Below are positions 2-4,975 of a stretch of DNA of 20,942 nucleotides, in pieces (position 1 is the stretch's first letter; each line of letters begins with the position of its first letter). A program made the position numbers and the translations under genes. This stretch comes from a virus. Location: positions 1-20,942 of IMG/VR virus record IMGVR_UViG_3300017917_002604; one strand, given 5' to 3'. Below the pieces are notes generated by a model. The model saw only the letters and a program-made list of their open reading frames with translations, was not told where the DNA came from and searched no databases.

Positions 2-502
2 TATCCAAAACAAGACTTAGTAAATAAAGGTGTCGGAAAGTTATTTACTCGTCATTGGAATAATATATATCTTTATTTAGATCCGACAGAGTGCGCTTTA
101 TTCTCCTGGTTGGTAGGTTATAGTGATGGGATAAACACCTTTACTTATACCACCACACTGCTAAAACAATTTGATAAAGCATCAGATAGAGCTATGGAGA
201 TATATGGAGTAAATAAGGTGAAGTATAAAACTTCGAGAGACAACGCACGGACGGCACTAATATCTTTGATAGAAAAAGGATTAATAATAAGAATATCCGG
301 TAAGAACCGATTTATGATAAACCCTTATGTAGTGTTTACAAATGATAAGAACCGGTTTTATAAGATACCAAGACATAAAGAATACCTTGAAATAGTGAAT
401 AAGTATTCCGGACAAGAATTACAAGATAAATTAACAGAACTATGTAATAACATAGAGAAATTTTACACAGAATATAATAGTAAGTATGGAAAAAGAGATT
501 AA
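2..502 (+). CDS. Winged-helix-like DNA-binding protein, 5' end outside window
   Basis: The reading frame is open from the first full codon (base 2) to the TAA at 500-502, so the gene starts upstream of the window; about 166 residues are visible. A TTG at 110 could be taken as a start, but open, protein-like sequence (LYLDPTECALFSWLVGY) precedes it, so I do not use it. The C-terminal half reads like a winged helix: a recognition-helix-like segment (TSRDNARTALISLIEKG) followed by a wing hairpin (LIIRISGKNRFMINPYVVF). The same layout, with SGKN-F-(I/V)NP, occurs in the gene at 1698-2030, so the two look paralogous. It overlaps the methyltransferase start by 17 bases, implying co-transcription. 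A role as repressor or replication-initiator-like protein is inference; the DNA target is unknown. Confidence 0.6.
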   Translation, partial: YPKQDLVNKGVGKLFTRHWNNIYLYLDPTECALFSWLVGYSDGINTFTYTTTLLKQFDKASDRAMEIYGVNKVKYKTSRDNARTALISLIEKGLIIRISGKNRFMINPYVVFTNDKNRFYKIPRHKEYLEIVNKYSGQELQDKLTELCNNIEKFYTEYNSKYGKRD

Positions 503-1028
503 AGTATTGAGTTTGTTTAATGGTATGGGCTGTATTTGGTTAGCCTTAGATAAATTAGGAATAAAAGTAACGGCAAGATATTCAAGTGAGGTGGATAAAT
601 ACGCTATTCAAGTGAACGATGCTAACTATCCCGACACAATTCAATTAGGGGATGTAAGAAACGTTAAAGGTTCTGATTTAGGGTATATTGATTTACTTGC
701 CGGAGGTTCTCCTTGTCAATCATTCTCGTTTGCTGGAAAACGTAAAGGGATGAGTACTAAAGATAATATTGAGATATTGACGTTAAAACACTATTTAGAA
801 CTTAAAAGTCAAGGATTTGAATTTGAAGGGCAATCTTATTTGTTTTGGGAGTATATGAGGATATATGCAGAATTACTTGAAATAAATCCTAATATAAAGT
901 TTTTACTTGAGAATGTAGAAATGGGTGTAAAGTGGGAAAAGATACTTACCAGAGCCATAGGAATCAATCCTATACATATTAACAGCTTTATTATCAGCTC
1001 AAAACAGAAAACGTGTTTACTGGACTAA
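486..1028 (+). CDS. C5-cytosine DNA methyltransferase, N-terminal part (frameshifted)
   Basis: This enzyme family transfers methyl from S-adenosylmethionine to cytosine C5 in DNA. Visible motifs: motif I LSLFNGMGCIWLAL (residues 8-21, with Asn where Asp is common), an acidic SSEVDKYA after it, GDV (55-57), the catalytic motif IV GSPCQSFSF (74-82, Cys77) and motif VI ENV (142-144). The frame then runs into TAG-less but non-homologous sequence and stops at 1026-1028. The expected motif VIII (QNRKR-YW) is present in the +1 frame from base 985, so the last 14 or so residues here are out-of-frame. The ATG at 486 lies inside the end of the upstream winged-helix gene. Phage methyltransferases of this type usually protect DNA against restriction; the recognition site cannot be read from sequence. 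Confidence 0.85.
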   Translation: MEKEIKVLSLFNGMGCIWLALDKLGIKVTARYSSEVDKYAIQVNDANYPDTIQLGDVRNVKGSDLGYIDLLAGGSPCQSFSFAGKRKGMSTKDNIEILTLKHYLELKSQGFEFEGQSYLFWEYMRIYAELLEINPNIKFLLENVEMGVKWEKILTRAIGINPIHINSFIISSKQKTCLLD

Positions 1029-1698
1029 CATTGGAGCTGAGTCAGATGGTTTATTTGGTGAACTTTACTGTAAAATACCCCAACCAAAAGACAAAGGAAT
1101 ACTATTAAAAGATATTTTAGAGCCAGAAGTTGACGAAAGATATTATTTATCAAATCAAAGATTAGAAACAATATCAAAATCCGATAGAAAGCAAAATTTT
1201 ATAAATGAAAATACTTCTAAACATGGCTGTTTAATTGCTGGATATAATAAAATACCTACTGATGGTAAATATATTTGCGTAGCGTCTCGTGGACGTAACC
1301 CTGAGAATCCTAAAAGTAGACAATCAGGTTTACCAACAGAACAACAATTAGAGCCTAGAAATGATGGTAAGACAATTTGTCTTACCTCTGTACAGAAAGA
1401 TAATTTAATAGTTCATAATATGATGCCACGATCATCAAAAAGTGGAAAAGGAGGAACGGGACATTTAACTCGTAATGATGGAAAAACTTATTGTTTAGAT
1501 ACAGGAAACACAAATGCGGTTGAAAAGGATTATCGAATAAGAAGATTAACTCCGATAGAGTGTTGTAGATTGCAAACAGTTCCAGATGATTACTTTTTTA
1601 AAGAAAGCAAACAAATAGTTTCAGACACTCAGATGTACAAACAGCTAGGAAACGGATGGACGGTTGACGTAATATCTCACATTTTAAGTTATTTATAA
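985..1698 (+). pseudogene. C5-cytosine DNA methyltransferase, C-terminal part in shifted frame
   Basis: Open frame without a plausible start codon of its own, continuing the methyltransferase. From base 985 it reads ALLSAQNRKRVYWTNIGA, which holds motif VIII (QNRKR). A variable region of about 150 residues follows (the usual place of the target-recognition domain), then motif IX (RRLTPIECCRLQTVPDDYF) and motif X (QLGNGWTVDVI). With the upstream part this makes a complete enzyme of about 403 residues. The junction AACAGCTTTATTA at 981-993 would be in frame if a GC had been lost from AACAGCGCTTTA. No classic slippery heptamer is evident. The first ATG in this frame is at 1420, too far downstream to make a working protein. 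The stop overlaps the next ATG (TAATG). Confidence 0.8.
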
Positions 1699-2030
1699 TG
1701 GAAAAAAAGAAGTCTAAAATAATACCATTAAGAGGTCAGGATGCTTATATTAAGTTATTAGCAAGTCAATTTGGGGTATCGGCGGACATGGAAATAGAAG
1801 TGATAAAAGTCCTTATTAAATTCGATATGTTCACTCCATTTTCGATGTGTAAGTACACAAGAGAGAAGATAAGAAGAGAATTGAATTGTCCTTACCCTAG
1901 TTTAAATACAGCAATACGCCGACTAATAAAGTCAAACGTAATAGCTAGAAGTGGTAAGAATTTTTATGTTAATCCAGGGTTTAGAGGCTTGGACGATATA
2001 GAATCAATAGTGTTTAAGAGAGTGGATTAG
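1698..2030 (+). CDS. Small winged-helix-like DNA-binding protein
   Basis: 110 residues. The start ATG overlaps the methyltransferase stop (TAATG at 1696-1700), so translation is probably coupled. The N-terminus is basic (MEKKKSK). Residues about 60-97 resemble a winged helix: a recognition-helix-like segment (PYPSLNTAIRRLIKSN) followed by a wing (VIARSGKNFYVNPGF). It resembles the partial protein at the left edge and is likely its paralogue. Being cotranscribed with a methyltransferase, it could be a controller-type regulator, but controller proteins are normally classic helix-turn-helix proteins, so this is only a guess. It ends 14 bases before the convergent leftward gene. Confidence 0.6.
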   Translation: MEKKKSKIIPLRGQDAYIKLLASQFGVSADMEIEVIKVLIKFDMFTPFSMCKYTREKIRRELNCPYPSLNTAIRRLIKSNVIARSGKNFYVNPGFRGLDDIESIVFKRVD

Positions 2031-2045
2031 CATTATACTTCCCTT
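2031..2045 (-). promoter_or_regulatory. TATAATG-type motif in a convergent gap
   Basis: On the minus strand this reads AAGGGAAGTATAATG, the best match to the motif repeated between the leftward genes. It fills the 14-base gap between convergent genes. If it is a promoter, it drives RNA antisense to the winged-helix and methyltransferase genes. If instead the motif marks gene ends, this copy would fit that too. Confidence 0.4.
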
Positions 2046-2308
2046 TAAAGATTTCTCCAATCAAGTCCGGAGTTGCGCTCTTCGTATCGTTGCTCCCAAT
2101 AGTCAAATGAATTTTGCTCATAGTGTTTTTGGCACTTCCATTTAATATCTTCCAACTCTTCTTCAGGGATGAGTTCGGATATTTCTAGTTTACCATTCAT
2201 AATTGAGTTTATGCGGATAGTAACTTCTCCGTCCTCTTTAAAGTACTCGAAGTCAATGGCTATATTGATTATAGCTCCGTCAATAGTTATTTCAGTTTCT
2301 TTGATCAT
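2045..2308 (-). CDS. Hypothetical acidic protein, 87 aa
   Basis: Not recognised. The protein is rich in acidic and aromatic residues. The first half looks like beta strands (EITIDGAIINIAIDFEYF, then GEVTIRINSI) and the second half like helix (PEEELEDIKWKCQKHYEQ), ending in LDWRNL. No membrane segment or known motif. The ATG at 2308 is the first in frame and follows an unusually long leader of about 220 bases with a folded RNA element. It is the last gene of the leftward block and converges with the winged-helix gene. Confidence 0.6.
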   Translation of the reverse strand: MIKETEITIDGAIINIAIDFEYFKEDGEVTIRINSIMNGKLEISELIPEEELEDIKWKCQKHYEQNSFDYWEQRYEERNSGLDWRNL

Positions 2309-2325
2309 GGTTACAAATTTAAGTA

Positions 2326-2395
2326 AAGCCGCCTTATGTATTTTAGAAACCCTTAACCACTAACCCCTTAATGGTAAAATATCACTCGGCGGCTT
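2326..2395 (-). ncRNA. Structured 5' leader RNA element
   Basis: On the minus strand three nested helices can be drawn: an outer 8-bp stem AAGCCGCC (2395-2388) with GGCGGCTT (2333-2326), a middle 6-bp stem TATTTT (2381-2376) with AAAATA (2344-2339), and an inner hairpin ACCATTAA-GGGG-TTAGTGGT (2375-2356). The inner hairpin pairs fully only as minus-strand RNA, through one G-U pair; the plus-strand transcript has a C-A mismatch there. That favours leftward transcription. It ends 17 bases before the ATG of the gene at 2045-2308. A regulatory leader (riboswitch-like or protein-bound) is inference. Between it and the motif at 2526 I see only a 14-codon ATG frame (2403-2447), too short to call. 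Confidence 0.5.
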
Positions 2396-2525
2396 AATAT
2401 TGATTTATTTTGATTTTAACGACGCTTGTGTTTTTATAGTAGGGTACATTATTTTTTAATAGACGTTAGAGCGTGGGTTAAATTTAATAAGTATAATTTG
2501 ATTTTAAATACAAGTTATTAGTTTG

Positions 2526-2541
2526 CATTATAATTCCGCTT
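2526..2541 (-). promoter_or_regulatory. Putative phage promoter, TATAATG motif
   Basis: Minus strand reads AAGCGGAATTATAATG. It lies about 217 bases upstream of the ATG at 2308 and just downstream of the gene ending at 2572. If it is the promoter of the 2045-2308 gene, the transcript carries the whole structured leader. Confidence 0.45.
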
Positions 2542-2556
2542 GAAAATTATCATCTA

Positions 2557-2579
2557 TAATTCAATTTTGAATTAAAAAA
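2557..2579. repeat. Palindrome TAATTCAANNTTGAATT, copy 1
   Basis: Arms AATTCAA and TTGAATT separated by TT, followed by six A on the + strand, exactly as in the copies at 7531 and 9641. It overlaps the stop codon of the leftward gene 2572-2742 and lies about 16 bases upstream (leftward sense) of a TATAATG motif. An operator is more likely than a terminator, because no T-run follows the stem in either direction. Confidence 0.55.
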
Positions 2580-2742
2580 TGCTTAATTGTTGTTTTGGTT
2601 GCATTGGTTTTTTAGTTTTTTCTTCAATGTAGTTTATACATTCTCTTTTAGTTCTGAACTTGCGCTCAAAAAACCAGGTTCCGTTGTCGTATTTATCTAC
2701 ACTGTAACCTACAATGCTTTTTCTATATTCGTATTTAGCCAT
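2572..2742 (-). CDS. Hypothetical small basic protein, 56 aa
   Basis: Not recognised. ATG at 2742 to TAA at 2572-2574; sequence begins MAKYEYRKSIVGYSVDKYD and ends QPKQQLSIF. It is basic and aromatic, with a GTWFFERKFRTKREC segment followed by a short helix, a pattern seen in small phage proteins, without a known function. The start is one base past the stop of the upstream gene (2744), so the two are very likely translated from one message. The 2572 end overlaps a palindromic repeat. Confidence 0.6.
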   Translation of the reverse strand: MAKYEYRKSIVGYSVDKYDNGTWFFERKFRTKRECINYIEEKTKKPMQPKQQLSIF

Positions 2743-2743
2743 T

Positions 2744-2965
2744 TTAAATTGTTTTTACGTTAATTACTGTACAAAGTTTCTTTATTTCGTTATAAATTTT
2801 CAGGCAGTCGGCGGCTGTTTTAGAGTAAAAAAGCTTGTATGCTAGTTCTTGACTTACATTATAACTCCTTTGATAGTTTTGTCTTTTAAACACTATAGTC
2901 ACTACTTCGTTATGGTAGTTCATACTGTCTAGTATTGGATTGTATGGTAATTTAGTGTGTATCAT
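2744..2965 (-). CDS. Hypothetical protein, 73 aa
   Basis: Not recognised. Begins MIHTKLPYNPILDSMNY; middle has a strand-like EVVTIVFKRQNYQRSYNV followed by a helix (QELAYKLFYSKTAADCLKIYNEI). No membrane segment. The leader before the ATG is A-rich (AAAATAAAACAATATG), the usual start context here. The tRNA-like gene lies 14 bases upstream, so both may be on one transcript from the motif at 3079. Confidence 0.6.
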   Translation of the reverse strand: MIHTKLPYNPILDSMNYHNEVVTIVFKRQNYQRSYNVSQELAYKLFYSKTAADCLKIYNEIKKLCTVINVKTI

Positions 2966-2979
2966 ATTGTTTTATTTTG

Positions 2980-3071
2980 TGGTTAGTATCGGACTCGAAC
3001 CGATATTTTCTTGCTACTCGCTATCTGACCCTATTTGTGGGTGTGTTTTGCCTAAATTAAACTAACTAACC
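2980..3071 (-). tRNA. tRNA-like gene, long variable region, abnormal anticodon loop
   Basis: Minus strand folds as a cloverleaf of 92 bases: acceptor GGTTAGT/ACTAACC (7 bp, perfect), T8-A9, D arm GTTT-AATTTAGGCA-AAAC with the GG pair, anticodon arm CACCC-ACAAATA-GGGTC (4 of 5 bp), a 22-base variable region, and T arm ATCGG-TTCGAGT-CCGAT with canonical TTCGA. CCA is not encoded. A long variable region is typical of Leu, Ser or Tyr tRNAs, but the loop ACAAATA has C at position 33 instead of U and T at 37. Read literally the anticodon is AAA, which does not fit class II. So all parts except the anticodon loop look functional. It is either a degenerate tRNA or a tRNA mimic; amino acid not assigned. 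The minus-strand -10-like TATAAT ends about 8 bases upstream. Confidence 0.6.
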
Positions 3072-3078
3072 GGTGTTG

Positions 3079-3092
3079 CATTATACGTCCTT
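3079..3092 (-). promoter_or_regulatory. Putative promoter of the tRNA-like gene
   Basis: Minus strand reads AAGGACGTATAATG. TATAAT lies 8 bases before the 5' end of the tRNA-like gene, which places the expected start of transcription almost at the tRNA 5' end. This spacing is the best argument that the repeated motif is a promoter. Confidence 0.5.
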
Positions 3093-3095
3093 GTA

Positions 3096-3386
3096 CTAAT
3101 TTAGTCCTAATCTGCTTTCGATTTTCATCCGGATTGTGTCTTTTAAACTGCGATCAAAACTATTGTCTTGTCCTATTGATTCATCAAGCCAGTTAATATG
3201 AGGGTATTTGTCCGCCGCTTGGTTAATTAATTGAATACGCTGTCTATACAGTTTCATGATTAGATTAGCTTTTTCACTTGCGGCGGCTGTTCCTTGTTTT
3301 ACGTCTTTAATATCATTACTTACACATTTTAATAGCTGTTTAAATGCTTCAATGTTTATTAAGTCGCTTTTAGTTAAATTTACCAT
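3096..3386 (-). CDS. Hypothetical helical protein, 96 aa
   Basis: Not recognised. Almost entirely helix-forming: MVNLTKSDLINIEAFKQLLK at the start, then a Lys/Ala-rich middle (KQGTAAASEKANLIMKLYRQ) and RIQLINQAADKYPHINWLDE before a basic end (MKIESRLGLN). No catalytic motif or membrane segment. A TATAATG motif is 25 bases upstream of the ATG, with A-rich sequence between. Member of the leftward early cluster. Confidence 0.6.
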   Translation of the reverse strand: MVNLTKSDLINIEAFKQLLKCVSNDIKDVKQGTAAASEKANLIMKLYRQRIQLINQAADKYPHINWLDESIGQDNSFDRSLKDTIRMKIESRLGLN

Positions 3387-3411
3387 AGTCTTTAAATTTT
3401 AATTAGTTTAA

Positions 3412-3426
3412 CATTATAGTTCCCTT
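3412..3426 (-). promoter_or_regulatory. Putative phage promoter, TATAATG motif
   Basis: Minus strand reads AAGGGAACTATAATG, 25 bases before the ATG at 3386 and directly after the stop of the 46-residue gene (3428). Close to consensus. Confidence 0.5.
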
Positions 3427-3427
3427 A

Positions 3428-3568
3428 TTAGATTATAGTACTTGATAGCATAATAAACTGTCCGTGTTTATTTACCATCTCTTGTTCAAACTCTTTCAAG
3501 TCTTGGGTGTCGGTGTAAATTTCTTTTACTGGACCTTTGCGGGTTAAAATTACAATTTCGTATTTCAT
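3428..3568 (-). CDS. Hypothetical small protein, 46 aa
   Basis: Not recognised. ATG at 3568, TAA at 3428-3430. Begins MKYEIVILTRKGPVKEIYTD and ends HGQFIMLSSTII: a strand, a helix (QDLKEFEQEMVNKHG) and a strand, a plausible small folded domain. It sits between two intergenic TATAATG motifs, as its neighbours do, which supports a real gene. The octamer TCGGCGGA lies three bases upstream of its ATG (3571-3578, + strand). Confidence 0.55.
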   Translation of the reverse strand: MKYEIVILTRKGPVKEIYTDTQDLKEFEQEMVNKHGQFIMLSSTII

Positions 3569-3618
3569 AGTCGGCGGATATTTTAAAAGTTTATACTAAT
3601 TTATTTATACAAAGGTTA

Positions 3619-3633
3619 CATTATAGCTCCCTT
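3619..3633 (-). promoter_or_regulatory. Putative phage promoter, TATAATG motif
   Basis: Minus strand reads AAGGGAGCTATAATG, about 50 bases before the ATG at 3568 and 6 bases after the stop of the 74-residue gene. Confidence 0.5.
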
Positions 3634-3639
3634 AATTAT

Positions 3640-3864
3640 TTAGATTACTTCTAACGTATGTTTAATAATCCACTCTTTTGTTTCTTTGTTCATTTCCATG
3701 TATCCAACTGTTACGTTAAATAATAGTTCTTTTTTATTCTTTTTAGGTAGTGCTTTTATTTGTTCGTGGGCTTGTTTGAATTGTCCATTTACAAAACTAT
3801 CGTTTATCATATAAAAGTATTCAATAGTATTTGTTAGTCCGTATGTATTTAGTAGTTGTTTCAT
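3640..3864 (-). CDS. Hypothetical small protein, 74 aa
   Basis: The layout resembles a type of small phage protein with a FYMINDSFVNGQFKQA segment followed by PKKNKKELL; I recall no assigned function. Predicted mostly helical, with no membrane segment or metal-binding cluster. The ATG has the common A-rich context TTAGAAACCATG, shared with the genes starting at 4850 and 5359. A TATAATG motif overlapping a palindromic repeat lies about 36 bases upstream. Confidence 0.6.
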   Translation of the reverse strand: MKQLLNTYGLTNTIEYFYMINDSFVNGQFKQAHEQIKALPKKNKKELLFNVTVGYMEMNKETKEWIIKHTLEVI

Positions 3865-3887
3865 GGTTTCTAATATTTAATAGTTTA

Positions 3888-3906
3888 TAATTCAACTTTG
3901 CATTAT
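3888..3906. repeat. Imperfect palindrome TAATTCAACTTTGCATTAT, copy 2
   Basis: 19 bases identical to 18999-19017. Arms AATTCAA/TTGCATT differ from the perfect palindrome by one base. It overlaps the TATAATG motif at 3901 and would cover its transcription start region, as an operator would. Confidence 0.45.
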
Positions 3907-3915
3907 AATTCCTTT
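3901..3915 (-). promoter_or_regulatory. Putative phage promoter, TATAATG motif
   Basis: Minus strand reads AAAGGAATTATAATG, 36 bases before the ATG at 3864. It sits right after the stop of the gene 3918-4121. Confidence 0.5.
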
Positions 3916-3917
3916 TG

Positions 3918-4121
3918 TTAATTGCTTGTAATTTCTTTAATGGTTTGCTCTATCTGTTCGGTGTTCTCAAACTCTCCTGCGTACATTTCCCTATCTATTT
4001 CAATAAAAGCGGTTATAACTTCATTTTGCTTTATATAGTAGCCTATATACTTATTATTTAGCATTATGTCCGTGTGAGCTTTTATGCTTTCGGTTCCTTG
4101 GTGGTTTATGTAACTTATCAT
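3918..4121 (-). CDS. Hypothetical small protein, 67 aa
   Basis: Not recognised. Begins MISYINHQGTESIKAHTDIM; strand-rich (NKYIGYYIKQNEVITAFIEI) with an acidic helical end (EFENTEQIEQTIKEITSN). Soluble, with no known motif. The ATG context is A-rich (AAAACTTAAAACGATG). Upstream gap of about 100 bases contains a weaker TATTATG version of the promoter-like motif. Confidence 0.6.
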   Translation of the reverse strand: MISYINHQGTESIKAHTDIMLNNKYIGYYIKQNEVITAFIEIDREMYAGEFENTEQIEQTIKEITSN

Positions 4122-4204
4122 CGTTTTAAGTTTTAAAGTGTTAATTTTTAATTTTCGTTTTTGCCATTCGGCGGCTGTACCTATCTATTATTTAAAATTA
4201 TCTA

Positions 4205-4218
4205 CATAATAATTCCTT
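4205..4218 (-). promoter_or_regulatory. Weaker TATTATG motif
   Basis: Minus strand reads AAGGAATTATTATG, one base off the TATAATG core, 83 bases before the ATG at 4121 and just after the gene ending at 4227. A further TATAATG at 4301-4307 lies inside the next gene and may be chance. Confidence 0.35.
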
Positions 4219-4226
4219 AATCTTAT

Positions 4227-4484
4227 TCATATAGGCATATACTTAACAGGTATATCTTTTAATAACCATATTCTGCTGTAACTCTTTAACTTACTACCTA
4301 CATTATAATTCTCCCCTCTGTAATACTCACAAAATTTAGTTCCCTTTTTATCCCCTTTTACATACATTCCAAATGTCATAAAACTGTCTTTATCAATCCT
4401 TAACTCTAATATGTCACACTCTGGATTATGCGTTAAATGACTGTTAAACTTAACTGTGTTACTATTTATCACTATATTTTTCAT
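4227..4484 (-). CDS. Hypothetical protein, 85 aa
   Basis: Not recognised. Begins MKNIVINSNTVKFNSHLTHN and ends LLKDIPVKYMPI. It looks beta-rich with charged turns (LELRIDKDSFMTFGMYVKGDKKGTKF) and carries two cysteines (CDILEL, KFCEYY) that are too far apart for a zinc knuckle. The start is preceded by AAATATAAAGACATG, the same AAGAC-ATG-like context as the gene at 3386. The 130 bases upstream of it contain no gene. Confidence 0.55.
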   Translation of the reverse strand: MKNIVINSNTVKFNSHLTHNPECDILELRIDKDSFMTFGMYVKGDKKGTKFCEYYRGENYNVGSKLKSYSRIWLLKDIPVKYMPI

Positions 4485-4613
4485 GTCTTTATATTTTATA
4501 TTATTAATACTCCTGTTATTTAATCCTTTAACTCTTGTAGCCGTTTGTTGTCGATTATCTTAAACCTATTATAGTTTAGGTATTATATAATTTTTATACC
4601 TCCAACTTATTGA

Positions 4614-4850
4614 CTACCAGCCGTTTAAACGAGTTATAAATTTGTTGCATTCTGCGTAAATTTCGCTTATTATGTCGCTTAAAACGTTGTTTAGTTCGTC
4701 TATTTCCATGTTATAAAGCATATCGAACGTGTCGCCGTTGTGTAAATGTGGTTTAAATTGCTTGTAATAATCTAATATACAATTAATTGCGCTTATTTTC
4801 TCCTCTTGCATCATTTGATTTAGTCGGGTTACTATTTGCGGGTTTTTCAT
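4614..4850 (-). CDS. Hypothetical helical protein, 78 aa
   Basis: Not recognised. MKNPQIVTRLNQMMQEEKIS at the start and then mostly helix; the middle HLHNGDTFDMLYNMEIDELN is acidic. Two isolated cysteines, no membrane segment. ATG context ATAGAAACCATG matches other leftward genes. No clear TATAATG motif precedes the next gene downstream; that gap has a GGAGGTATAAAAATTATATAAT stretch instead. Confidence 0.55.
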   Translation of the reverse strand: MKNPQIVTRLNQMMQEEKISAINCILDYYKQFKPHLHNGDTFDMLYNMEIDELNNVLSDIISEIYAECNKFITRLNGW

Positions 4851-4975
4851 GGTTTCTATGTTTTTAAGGGTTAAAATTTAAAATACTTTGTCGATTAAAA
4901 AGCGGCTTTTGTCGATAAATGGTGTCTAAAAATGCGGGGTTTTATCGGGTTTTTACTAAATTCGTCGAAATTGAG

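What the first reader, a model, noticed from the sequence alone, without database searches (positions are those of the whole stretch)
2980..3071. tRNA-like gene with canonical arms but a non-canonical anticodon loop
Acceptor, D and T arms are near perfect, and the variable region is long (22 bases), but the anticodon loop ACAAATA lacks U33 and has a pyrimidine at 37. Selection seems to keep the tRNA shape but not decoding. It might be a tRNA mimic, a decoy for host nucleases or modifying enzymes, or a decaying tRNA.
Basis: partly seen in the sequence, partly recalled or inferred. Interest (0 to 1): 0.6.

Follow-up and report, generated by a model that had tools for sequence, protein, structure and literature searches.

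The report
Non-decoding tRNA-shaped RNA in phage operon
A crAss-like phage of uncultured bacteria carries, right in front of the start codon of a small gene, an RNA element that folds like a transfer RNA but cannot read a codon, and many other uncultured phages carry similar elements whose middle part changes freely while the tRNA frame is kept, which points to a use of tRNA shape that is not protein decoding.

Summary
On the minus strand, 3071-2980, a 92-nt tRNA cloverleaf (Rfam tRNA 41.9 bits, ARAGORN) has perfect acceptor, D and T arms and intact core nucleotides. Its anticodon loop is ACAAATA (C33, U37), on a 4-bp stem with a C27-C43 mismatch, with a 22-nt variable region. ARAGORN's "Phe(AAA)" is not credible.

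It is probably not an isolated decaying tRNA. A relative has the empty site: the tRNA-like element plus a 14-nt A-rich leader is inserted exactly before the start codon of the 73-aa ORF 2744-2965. Four other non-decoding tRNA-like elements in related phages (loops of 6, 7 without U33, 8 and 14 nt) also end 14-17 nt before a start codon. More widely in IMG/VR I found tRNA-like elements with conserved acceptor, D and T arms, Y48 and C74 but a hypervariable centre, including a virus-only family (AGTCAGG...CCTGACTA).

Best explanation (about 0.42, inferred): a tRNA-shaped processing cassette, cut out of the operon transcript by host RNase P and 3' tRNA processing, freeing the downstream message. 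Rivals: trans-acting mimic or decoy, decaying tRNA, unusual decoding tRNA. No direct relative of the window's own element was found, so its class membership rests on anatomy.

The parts
2980..3071 (-). tRNA-like element, 92 nt, non-canonical anticodon arm
   Evidence: ARAGORN, Rfam 41.9 bits, fold z -3.26
3065..3071 (-). acceptor stem 5' strand GGTTAGT (pairs 7/7 with ACTAACC at 2981-2987)
3045..3062 (-). D arm GTTT-AATTTAGGCA-AAAC, with A14, A15, G18G19
3027..3043 (-). anticodon arm CACCC-ACAAATA-GGGTC; loop 3032-3038 lacks U33 and has U37; C27-C43 mismatch
3005..3026 (-). long variable region (22 nt), ends with U48 (Levitt partner of A15)
2988..3004 (-). T arm ATCGG-TTCGAGT-CCGAT, 5/5 pairs
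2980..2987 (-). acceptor 3' strand ACTAACC and discriminator A73
2966..2979 (-). A-rich leader CAAAATAAAACAAT between the tRNA-like element and the start codon; begins with C74; part of the inserted cassette
   Evidence: absent from the empty site in L054; similar leaders behind related elements
3072..3081 (-). 5' part of the inserted cassette (ATGCAACACC); the sequence before it, GGACGTATA (3082-3090), is the old leader of the ORF as still seen in G002
2744..2965 (-). downstream ORF, 73 aa, unknown function, conserved in 7 of 13 relatives searched
3096..3386 (-). upstream ORF in the same orientation, 96 aa, unknown function; directly adjacent to the 73-aa ORF in G002

Best explanation
The element is a non-decoding tRNA-shaped RNA cassette inserted between two genes of a minus-strand phage operon. 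Shown: it has the full tRNA top half and core, a non-decoding anticodon arm, an encoded C74, and its own A-rich leader placed exactly before a start codon. Inferred: in the polycistronic transcript, host RNase P cuts its 5' end and RNase Z or exonucleases cut behind position 73/74 as for a tRNA. This leaves the 73-aa ORF on a message with a short unstructured A-rich leader (the usual kind of start context in Bacteroidota, from general knowledge) and releases a stable tRNA-shaped RNA. These enzymes read the acceptor and T arms, so the anticodon domain is free to vary or to carry another function.
For: Empty site in relative G002...GGACGTATA|ATGATACACAC against a 116-nt insertion (tRNA-like + CAAAATAAAACAAT) in the window. 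Five non-decoding elements in the window's clade all end 14-17 nt before an ATG ORF, while the three canonical tRNA-Gln genes have no ORF start within 240 nt. Two syntenic sites: L042/L044 keep upstream DNA (100%), acceptor and T arms but replace the anticodon arm (8-nt versus 14-nt loop); L040/L041 keep the stems through 7 double changes with one broken pair. The 3' flank C74 is kept as in real tRNA genes: 48/54 AGTCAGG-type and 7/7 other odd elements versus 57/67 canonical. Y48 is kept next to a hypervariable centre (U48 in 84/91). In the same contigs, 17/47 AGTCAGG elements versus 4/38 canonical tRNAs lie within 35 nt of a downstream ATG ORF.
Against: No transcript or cleavage data. Most AGTCAGG-type elements (38 of 61 not followed by another RNA in the less biased sample) are not within 35 nt of an ORF, so punctuation cannot be their only role. 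Canonical phage tRNAs also often sit close to ORFs (108 of 495 within 35 nt). For the odd elements outside the AGTCAGG family the enrichment is not significant by itself (9/30, p = 0.36). Swapping of whole centres at a fixed site is not required by pure punctuation. The window element has no sequenced direct homologue.
Confidence: 0.42

Rival explanations
1. Trans-acting tRNA mimic: the released RNA binds or is cut by a host factor that acts on tRNAs (anticodon or tail nucleases of anti-phage defence, modification or charging enzymes, CCA-adding enzyme) and so protects the phage; the centre varies because partners vary.
For: Scaffold, core and 3' flank kept while the centre turns over at syntenic sites (11 of 19 odd pairs versus 5 of 44 canonical pairs with scaffold identity >=0.8 have middle identity <0.55, Fisher p 2.4e-4). 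Elements also occur in arrays with no ORF behind them (L316). Phage tRNAs are known to counter tRNA-targeting defences (PMC10264068; PMC11555353).
Against: A decoy for an anticodon nuclease should keep a host-like loop; here loops differ in every element. The known cases are decoding tRNAs. It does not explain the insertion exactly before a start codon with a new leader.
Confidence: 0.25
2. Decaying tRNA: a former class II phage tRNA that recently lost decoding by point mutations in the anticodon loop.
For: Two or three substitutions would suffice; phage tRNA loci turn over fast (L036/L037/L045 have near-identical upstream DNA but different tRNAs); no relative of this very element was found to show conservation.
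Against: All stems and core nucleotides outside the anticodon arm are intact; non-decoding elements make up about 7 of 16 tRNA-like genes in this clade against about 5% of ARAGORN calls in the less biased phage sample; L040/L041 keep their shape through compensatory changes.
Confidence: 0.2
3. Working decoding tRNA with an unusual loop (Phe AAA, or another identity charged without reading the anticodon).
For: ARAGORN reads anticodon AAA; U33 is not absolutely needed in all known tRNAs, and Leu and Ser synthetases do not read the anticodon (general knowledge).
Against: A long variable region is a Leu/Ser/Tyr feature, not Phe; A34 is rare in bacterial tRNAs; C33 and U37 together and a 4-bp stem; UUU and UUC are ordinary codons here (30 and 12 per 1000).
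Confidence: 0.05

Closest known systems
Phage-encoded tRNA genes, including those with anticodon-loop mutations proposed to resist anticodon nucleases (van den Berg et al. 2023, PMC10264068; phage tRNAs against retron defence, PMC11555353)
   Same: phage-borne tRNA-shaped RNA with an altered anticodon loop; full acceptor and T arms
   Different: those tRNAs still decode; here the loop lacks U33 and purine 37, related elements have 6- to 14-nt loops or long unrelated centres, and the element sits with its own leader directly before a start codon
tRNA punctuation of mitochondrial polycistronic transcripts
   Same: tRNA-shaped units between genes that, by the hypothesis, are cut out by RNase P and 3' processing to free messages
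   Different: mitochondrial punctuation uses working tRNAs; no cleavage has been shown here
Engineered tRNA scaffold for RNA expression (insert in place of the anticodon arm, as in PMC3753655)
   Same: a foreign RNA segment sits where the anticodon arm was, on a tRNA acceptor/D/T frame (AGTCAGG family)
   Different: natural, viral, with exchangeable centres; the role of the centre is unknown. Details of the engineered system are from general knowledge; the paper was only listed
yjdF riboswitch with tRNA-like fold (PMC9142559)
   Same: tRNA-like fold in a bacterial mRNA leader that regulates translation
   Different: no similarity found; Rfam reports only the tRNA family here. Known to me from its abstract only

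Membership tests
tRNA (Rfam RF00005) | cloverleaf with acceptor, D and T arms and core nucleotides | tested here: met
   41.9 bits, gathering score 29; all three arms fully paired
tRNA (Rfam RF00005) | 5-bp anticodon stem, 7-nt loop with U33 and purine 37 | tested here: not met
   4 bp + C-C mismatch, loop ACAAATA with C33 and U37
tRNA (Rfam RF00005) | aminoacylation and decoding | not testable with these tools
   needs biochemistry
Anticodon-nuclease-resistant phage tRNA | decodes a codon for which the host tRNA is cleaved, with a loop mutation at the cleavage site | tested here: not met
   no credible anticodon; identity unclear. Cleavage itself not testable
tRNA-like processing (punctuation) element | lies between co-oriented genes, directly before a start codon | tested here: met
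   24 nt behind the upstream ORF, 14 nt before the ATG; empty site in G002
tRNA-like processing (punctuation) element | cleavage at both ends by tRNA-processing enzymes | not testable with these tools
   only indirect: C74 and the top half conserved
AGTCAGG hypervariable tRNA-like family (found here) | scaffold AGTCAGG-TGGCGGAAT...CAGGTTCGAATCCTGTCCTGACTA with variable centre | tested here: not met
   scaffold start absent from the window and 49 related records, 1 mismatch allowed
tmRNA | tmRNA model or tag ORF | tested here: not met
   neither ARAGORN nor Rfam reports a tmRNA in the window

The most novel reading that the evidence does not exclude
Uncultured phages use tRNA scaffolds as carriers for exchangeable RNA payloads: the acceptor, D and T arms and the elbow are kept for processing and stability, the anticodon domain is replaced by hypervariable inserts (about 20-130 nt) that are swapped between phages and loci, and the units are often placed with their own leader in front of phage genes. 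The window element is a small member by anatomy, with an independent scaffold.
Probability: 0.3. Interest if true: 0.85.

Novelty: new variant of a known kind. Interest (0 to 1): 0.6.

Why it matters
Why phages carry tRNA genes has been argued over for decades, and nearly all hypotheses assume that the tRNAs decode. A set of phage tRNA-like elements that keep the tRNA frame but cannot decode, sit before start codons, and in one virus-only family carry hypervariable centres, separates 'being a tRNA' from 'being processed or recognised as a tRNA' and can be tested directly by RNA end mapping. It also warns that many annotated phage tRNAs of undetermined type may belong to a different class of RNA.

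Tried and rejected
(1) Hidden normal fold or shifted loop (for example CAA at 34-36): it breaks two stem pairs; rejected. (2) Suppressor or recoding tRNA: no CUA or UCA in the loop; the large ORFs are intact under code 11. (3) TATAATG just upstream as a promoter: the empty site shows it is the old leader and start codon region of the 73-aa ORF. (4) Centres as antisense guides to the phage's own genes: longest own-contig match for the window 10 nt (shuffles mean 8.6, max 14); for 121 AGT-type elements no excess over shuffles. (5) Direct homologues of the window element: none in INPHARED or by 5' pattern in IMG/VR. (6) Centres of the AGTCAGG family as normal Leu tRNA arms: 4 of 91 have even a loosely canonical anticodon arm. 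(7) Odd elements outside the AGTCAGG family are not significantly nearer to ORFs than canonical tRNAs in the wide sample (p = 0.36), so the leader rule is firm only within the window's clade (small numbers) and moderate for the AGTCAGG family (p about 0.01). (8) A larger ATG-anchored sample is biased by design and was left out of the ORF-distance tests.

Full report
WHAT IS THERE. It scores 41.9 bits against Rfam tRNA (gathering 29) and folds with z = -3.26. Acceptor (7/7), D (4/4) and T (5/5) arms are perfect, and the core nucleotides U8, A14, A15-U48, G18G19, UUC 54-56 and A58 are present. The anticodon stem has 4 pairs and a C27-C43 mismatch; the loop ACAAATA has C33 and U37; the variable region is 22 nt. 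The label Phe(AAA) cannot be right as stated: a long variable region is not a Phe feature, and the loop lacks the decoding nucleotides.

HOST AND NEIGHBOURHOOD. The window is a 20.9-kb IMG/VR contig. Its terminase, portal and major head proteins match PHROG families, and the terminase is 21-27% identical to crAss-like phages, with Flavobacterium phages also among the distant matches. Bacteroidota hosts are therefore likely (inference). The element lies between two minus-strand ORFs, 24 nt after the 96-aa ORF (3096-3386) and 14 nt before the ATG of a 73-aa ORF (2744-2965). Neither ORF has a Pfam or PHROG match.

EMPTY SITE. The 73-aa ORF has homologues in 7 of 13 relatives searched. In G002 (locus L054) the two ORFs are directly adjacent...AACAGGACGTATA|ATGATACACACG. 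In the window the same left side...ACAAGGACGTATA, is followed by ATGCAACACC, the 92-nt tRNA-like element, CAAAATAAAACAAT, and then ATGATACACAC (the right-hand junction was read by eye, because MAFFT aligned only the left side). The tRNA-like element therefore came in, together with a 14-nt A-rich leader, as a cassette of about 116 nt exactly before the start codon. The apparent TATAATG box upstream is the remnant of the old start region, not a promoter.

RELATED PHAGES. A tRNA scan of 34 related records with ARAGORN and manual cloverleaf reading shows three canonical tRNA-Gln(UUG) genes, a cluster of canonical tRNAs in G012, and several non-decoding elements: L044 (8-nt loop), L042 (14-nt loop), L040 (6-nt loop), L041 (7-nt loop with G33), plus two weaker ones (L045, L050; 30.9 and 22.3 bits). 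Counting the window, about 7 of 16 tRNA-like genes of the clade are non-decoding. The odd share of ARAGORN calls in the less biased phage sample is about 5% (45 of 933). The five clear ones (window, L040, L041, L042, L044) all end 14-17 nt before an ATG ORF, behind leaders such as CAAAACAAAAACAATAA and CAAAATAAAAAACTA. The canonical Gln genes have no ORF start within 240 nt. Numbers are small (five versus a handful) and the loci are not independent.

SYNTENIC PAIRS IN THE CLADE. L042 and L044 precede homologous 155-aa genes. The 60 nt upstream are identical, acceptor and T arms are identical, and the leader is 88% identical, but the anticodon arm is replaced. L040 and L041 precede a 200-aa gene whose first 240 nt are 93% identical (92% protein identity). 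The two elements are only 64% alike but keep their stems: 7 double compensatory changes, 1 single, 1 broken pair, with an unchanged anticodon stem and different loops. Replacement by another element, rather than gradual change, cannot be excluded for L040/L041.

A WIDER CLASS. One scaffold stood out: AGTCAGG-TG-GCGGAAT(T)GGTAGACGC ... TACAGGTTCGAATCCTGTCCTGACTA. Of 91 occurrences read, 71 had the complementary 3' half, with total lengths of 73-160 nt and unrelated centres. Several copies with different centres can occur in one phage (L316). Only 4 of 91 distinct elements have even a loosely canonical anticodon arm. A 26-nt form of the scaffold occurs in just 3 short contigs of 84,980 bacterial and archaeal species genomes, so it is essentially viral. 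It is absent from the window's own clade, so the window shares the anatomy, not the scaffold.

SELECTION ON THE SCAFFOLD, NOT THE CENTRE. At syntenic sites (similar flanks) with scaffold identity of at least 0.8, the centre is below 0.55 identity in 11 of 19 pairs of odd elements but in 5 of 44 pairs of canonical tRNAs (Fisher p 2.4e-4). Examples: L231/L300 (upstream 100%, scaffold 94%, centre 18%, 23 versus 109 nt) and L456/L487 (flanks 93-97%, scaffold 100%, centre 50%). The reverse also occurs: L429/L475 have identical centres in unrelated flanks, so units or centres move. Position 48, next to the variable centre, is U in 84 of 91 (background 25%), and position 74 is C in 48 of 54, as in canonical phage tRNAs (57 of 67). 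This is what is expected if the RNA folds into the tRNA L shape and keeps a tRNA-type 3' end. AGTCAGG elements are nearer to downstream ORFs than canonical tRNAs (23/61 versus 108/495 within 35 nt, p about 0.01; within the same contigs 17/47 versus 4/38), but most are not directly before an ORF.

HOW IT PROBABLY WORKS. Shown: shape, non-decoding loop, insertion with a leader before a start codon, and recurrence in relatives. Inferred: transcription as part of the operon, cutting by RNase P and 3' tRNA processing, and release of the downstream message with a short A-rich leader. Not shown: any transcript, cleavage, charging or phenotype. The main rival is a trans-acting tRNA mimic; the fast turnover of the centre in the wider class fits this as well as or better than punctuation alone, and the two can be combined (a processed carrier with a variable payload). 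Decay of a recent class II tRNA remains possible for the window element taken alone, because no direct homologue of it was found.

COMPARISON WITH THE LITERATURE. Phage tRNAs with anticodon-loop mutations proposed to resist host nucleases (PMC10264068) and phage tRNAs that overcome retron-type defence (PMC11555353) are decoding tRNAs. Searches of the held open-access library found no description of non-decoding phage tRNA-like leader elements or of hypervariable tRNA scaffolds. That library is not complete, so novelty is provisional.

LIMITS. The class membership of the window element rests on anatomy and on its clade, not on sequence descent from the AGTCAGG family.

Noticed in passing
window 486-1028 and 1420-1698, + strand: A C5-cytosine DNA methyltransferase is split into two ORFs about 390 nt apart (PHROG methyltransferase match in the first, Pfam DNA_methylase in the second). 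It could be an insertion, an intron or a broken gene.
   Followed up: no
L316 (IMGVR_UViG_3300035681_000025), minus strand, about 1165-4949: A largely non-coding array of many tRNA-like elements: canonical tRNAs mixed with several AGTCAGG elements with different centres (up to 169 nt) and other structured repeats.
   Followed up: partly
L149 (G010), about 150 nt upstream of the homologue of the 155-aa gene: Where two relatives carry a tRNA-like element before this gene, G010 has a different structured leader with nested and crossing complementary segments (GGGCTA/TAGCCC, AACTCGTTT/AAACGAGTT, CAAGTAGCC/GGCTGCTTG); no Rfam match.
   Followed up: partly
L036, L037, L045 (G001, G002, G010): Near-identical upstream DNA is followed by different tRNA genes (two unrelated tRNA-Gln, or an odd element plus tRNA-Gln), so this locus swaps tRNAs quickly.
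   Followed up: no
L197 5885-5980 (+), L201, L316: A second recurrent tRNA-like type, TGGTGTAA...GCACAG...GAAAGGGG...GGTTCGAATCCTT...TTAGTCA, with a long centre.
   Followed up: no
L464, L483, L253: Centres of AGTCAGG elements with a shared motif AAGCGTAGTAAG ... ACGACG(T/C)ATA and covarying stems (CGCAC/GTGCG versus GGGTG/CACCC), suggesting that some centres are structured and functional.
   Followed up: no
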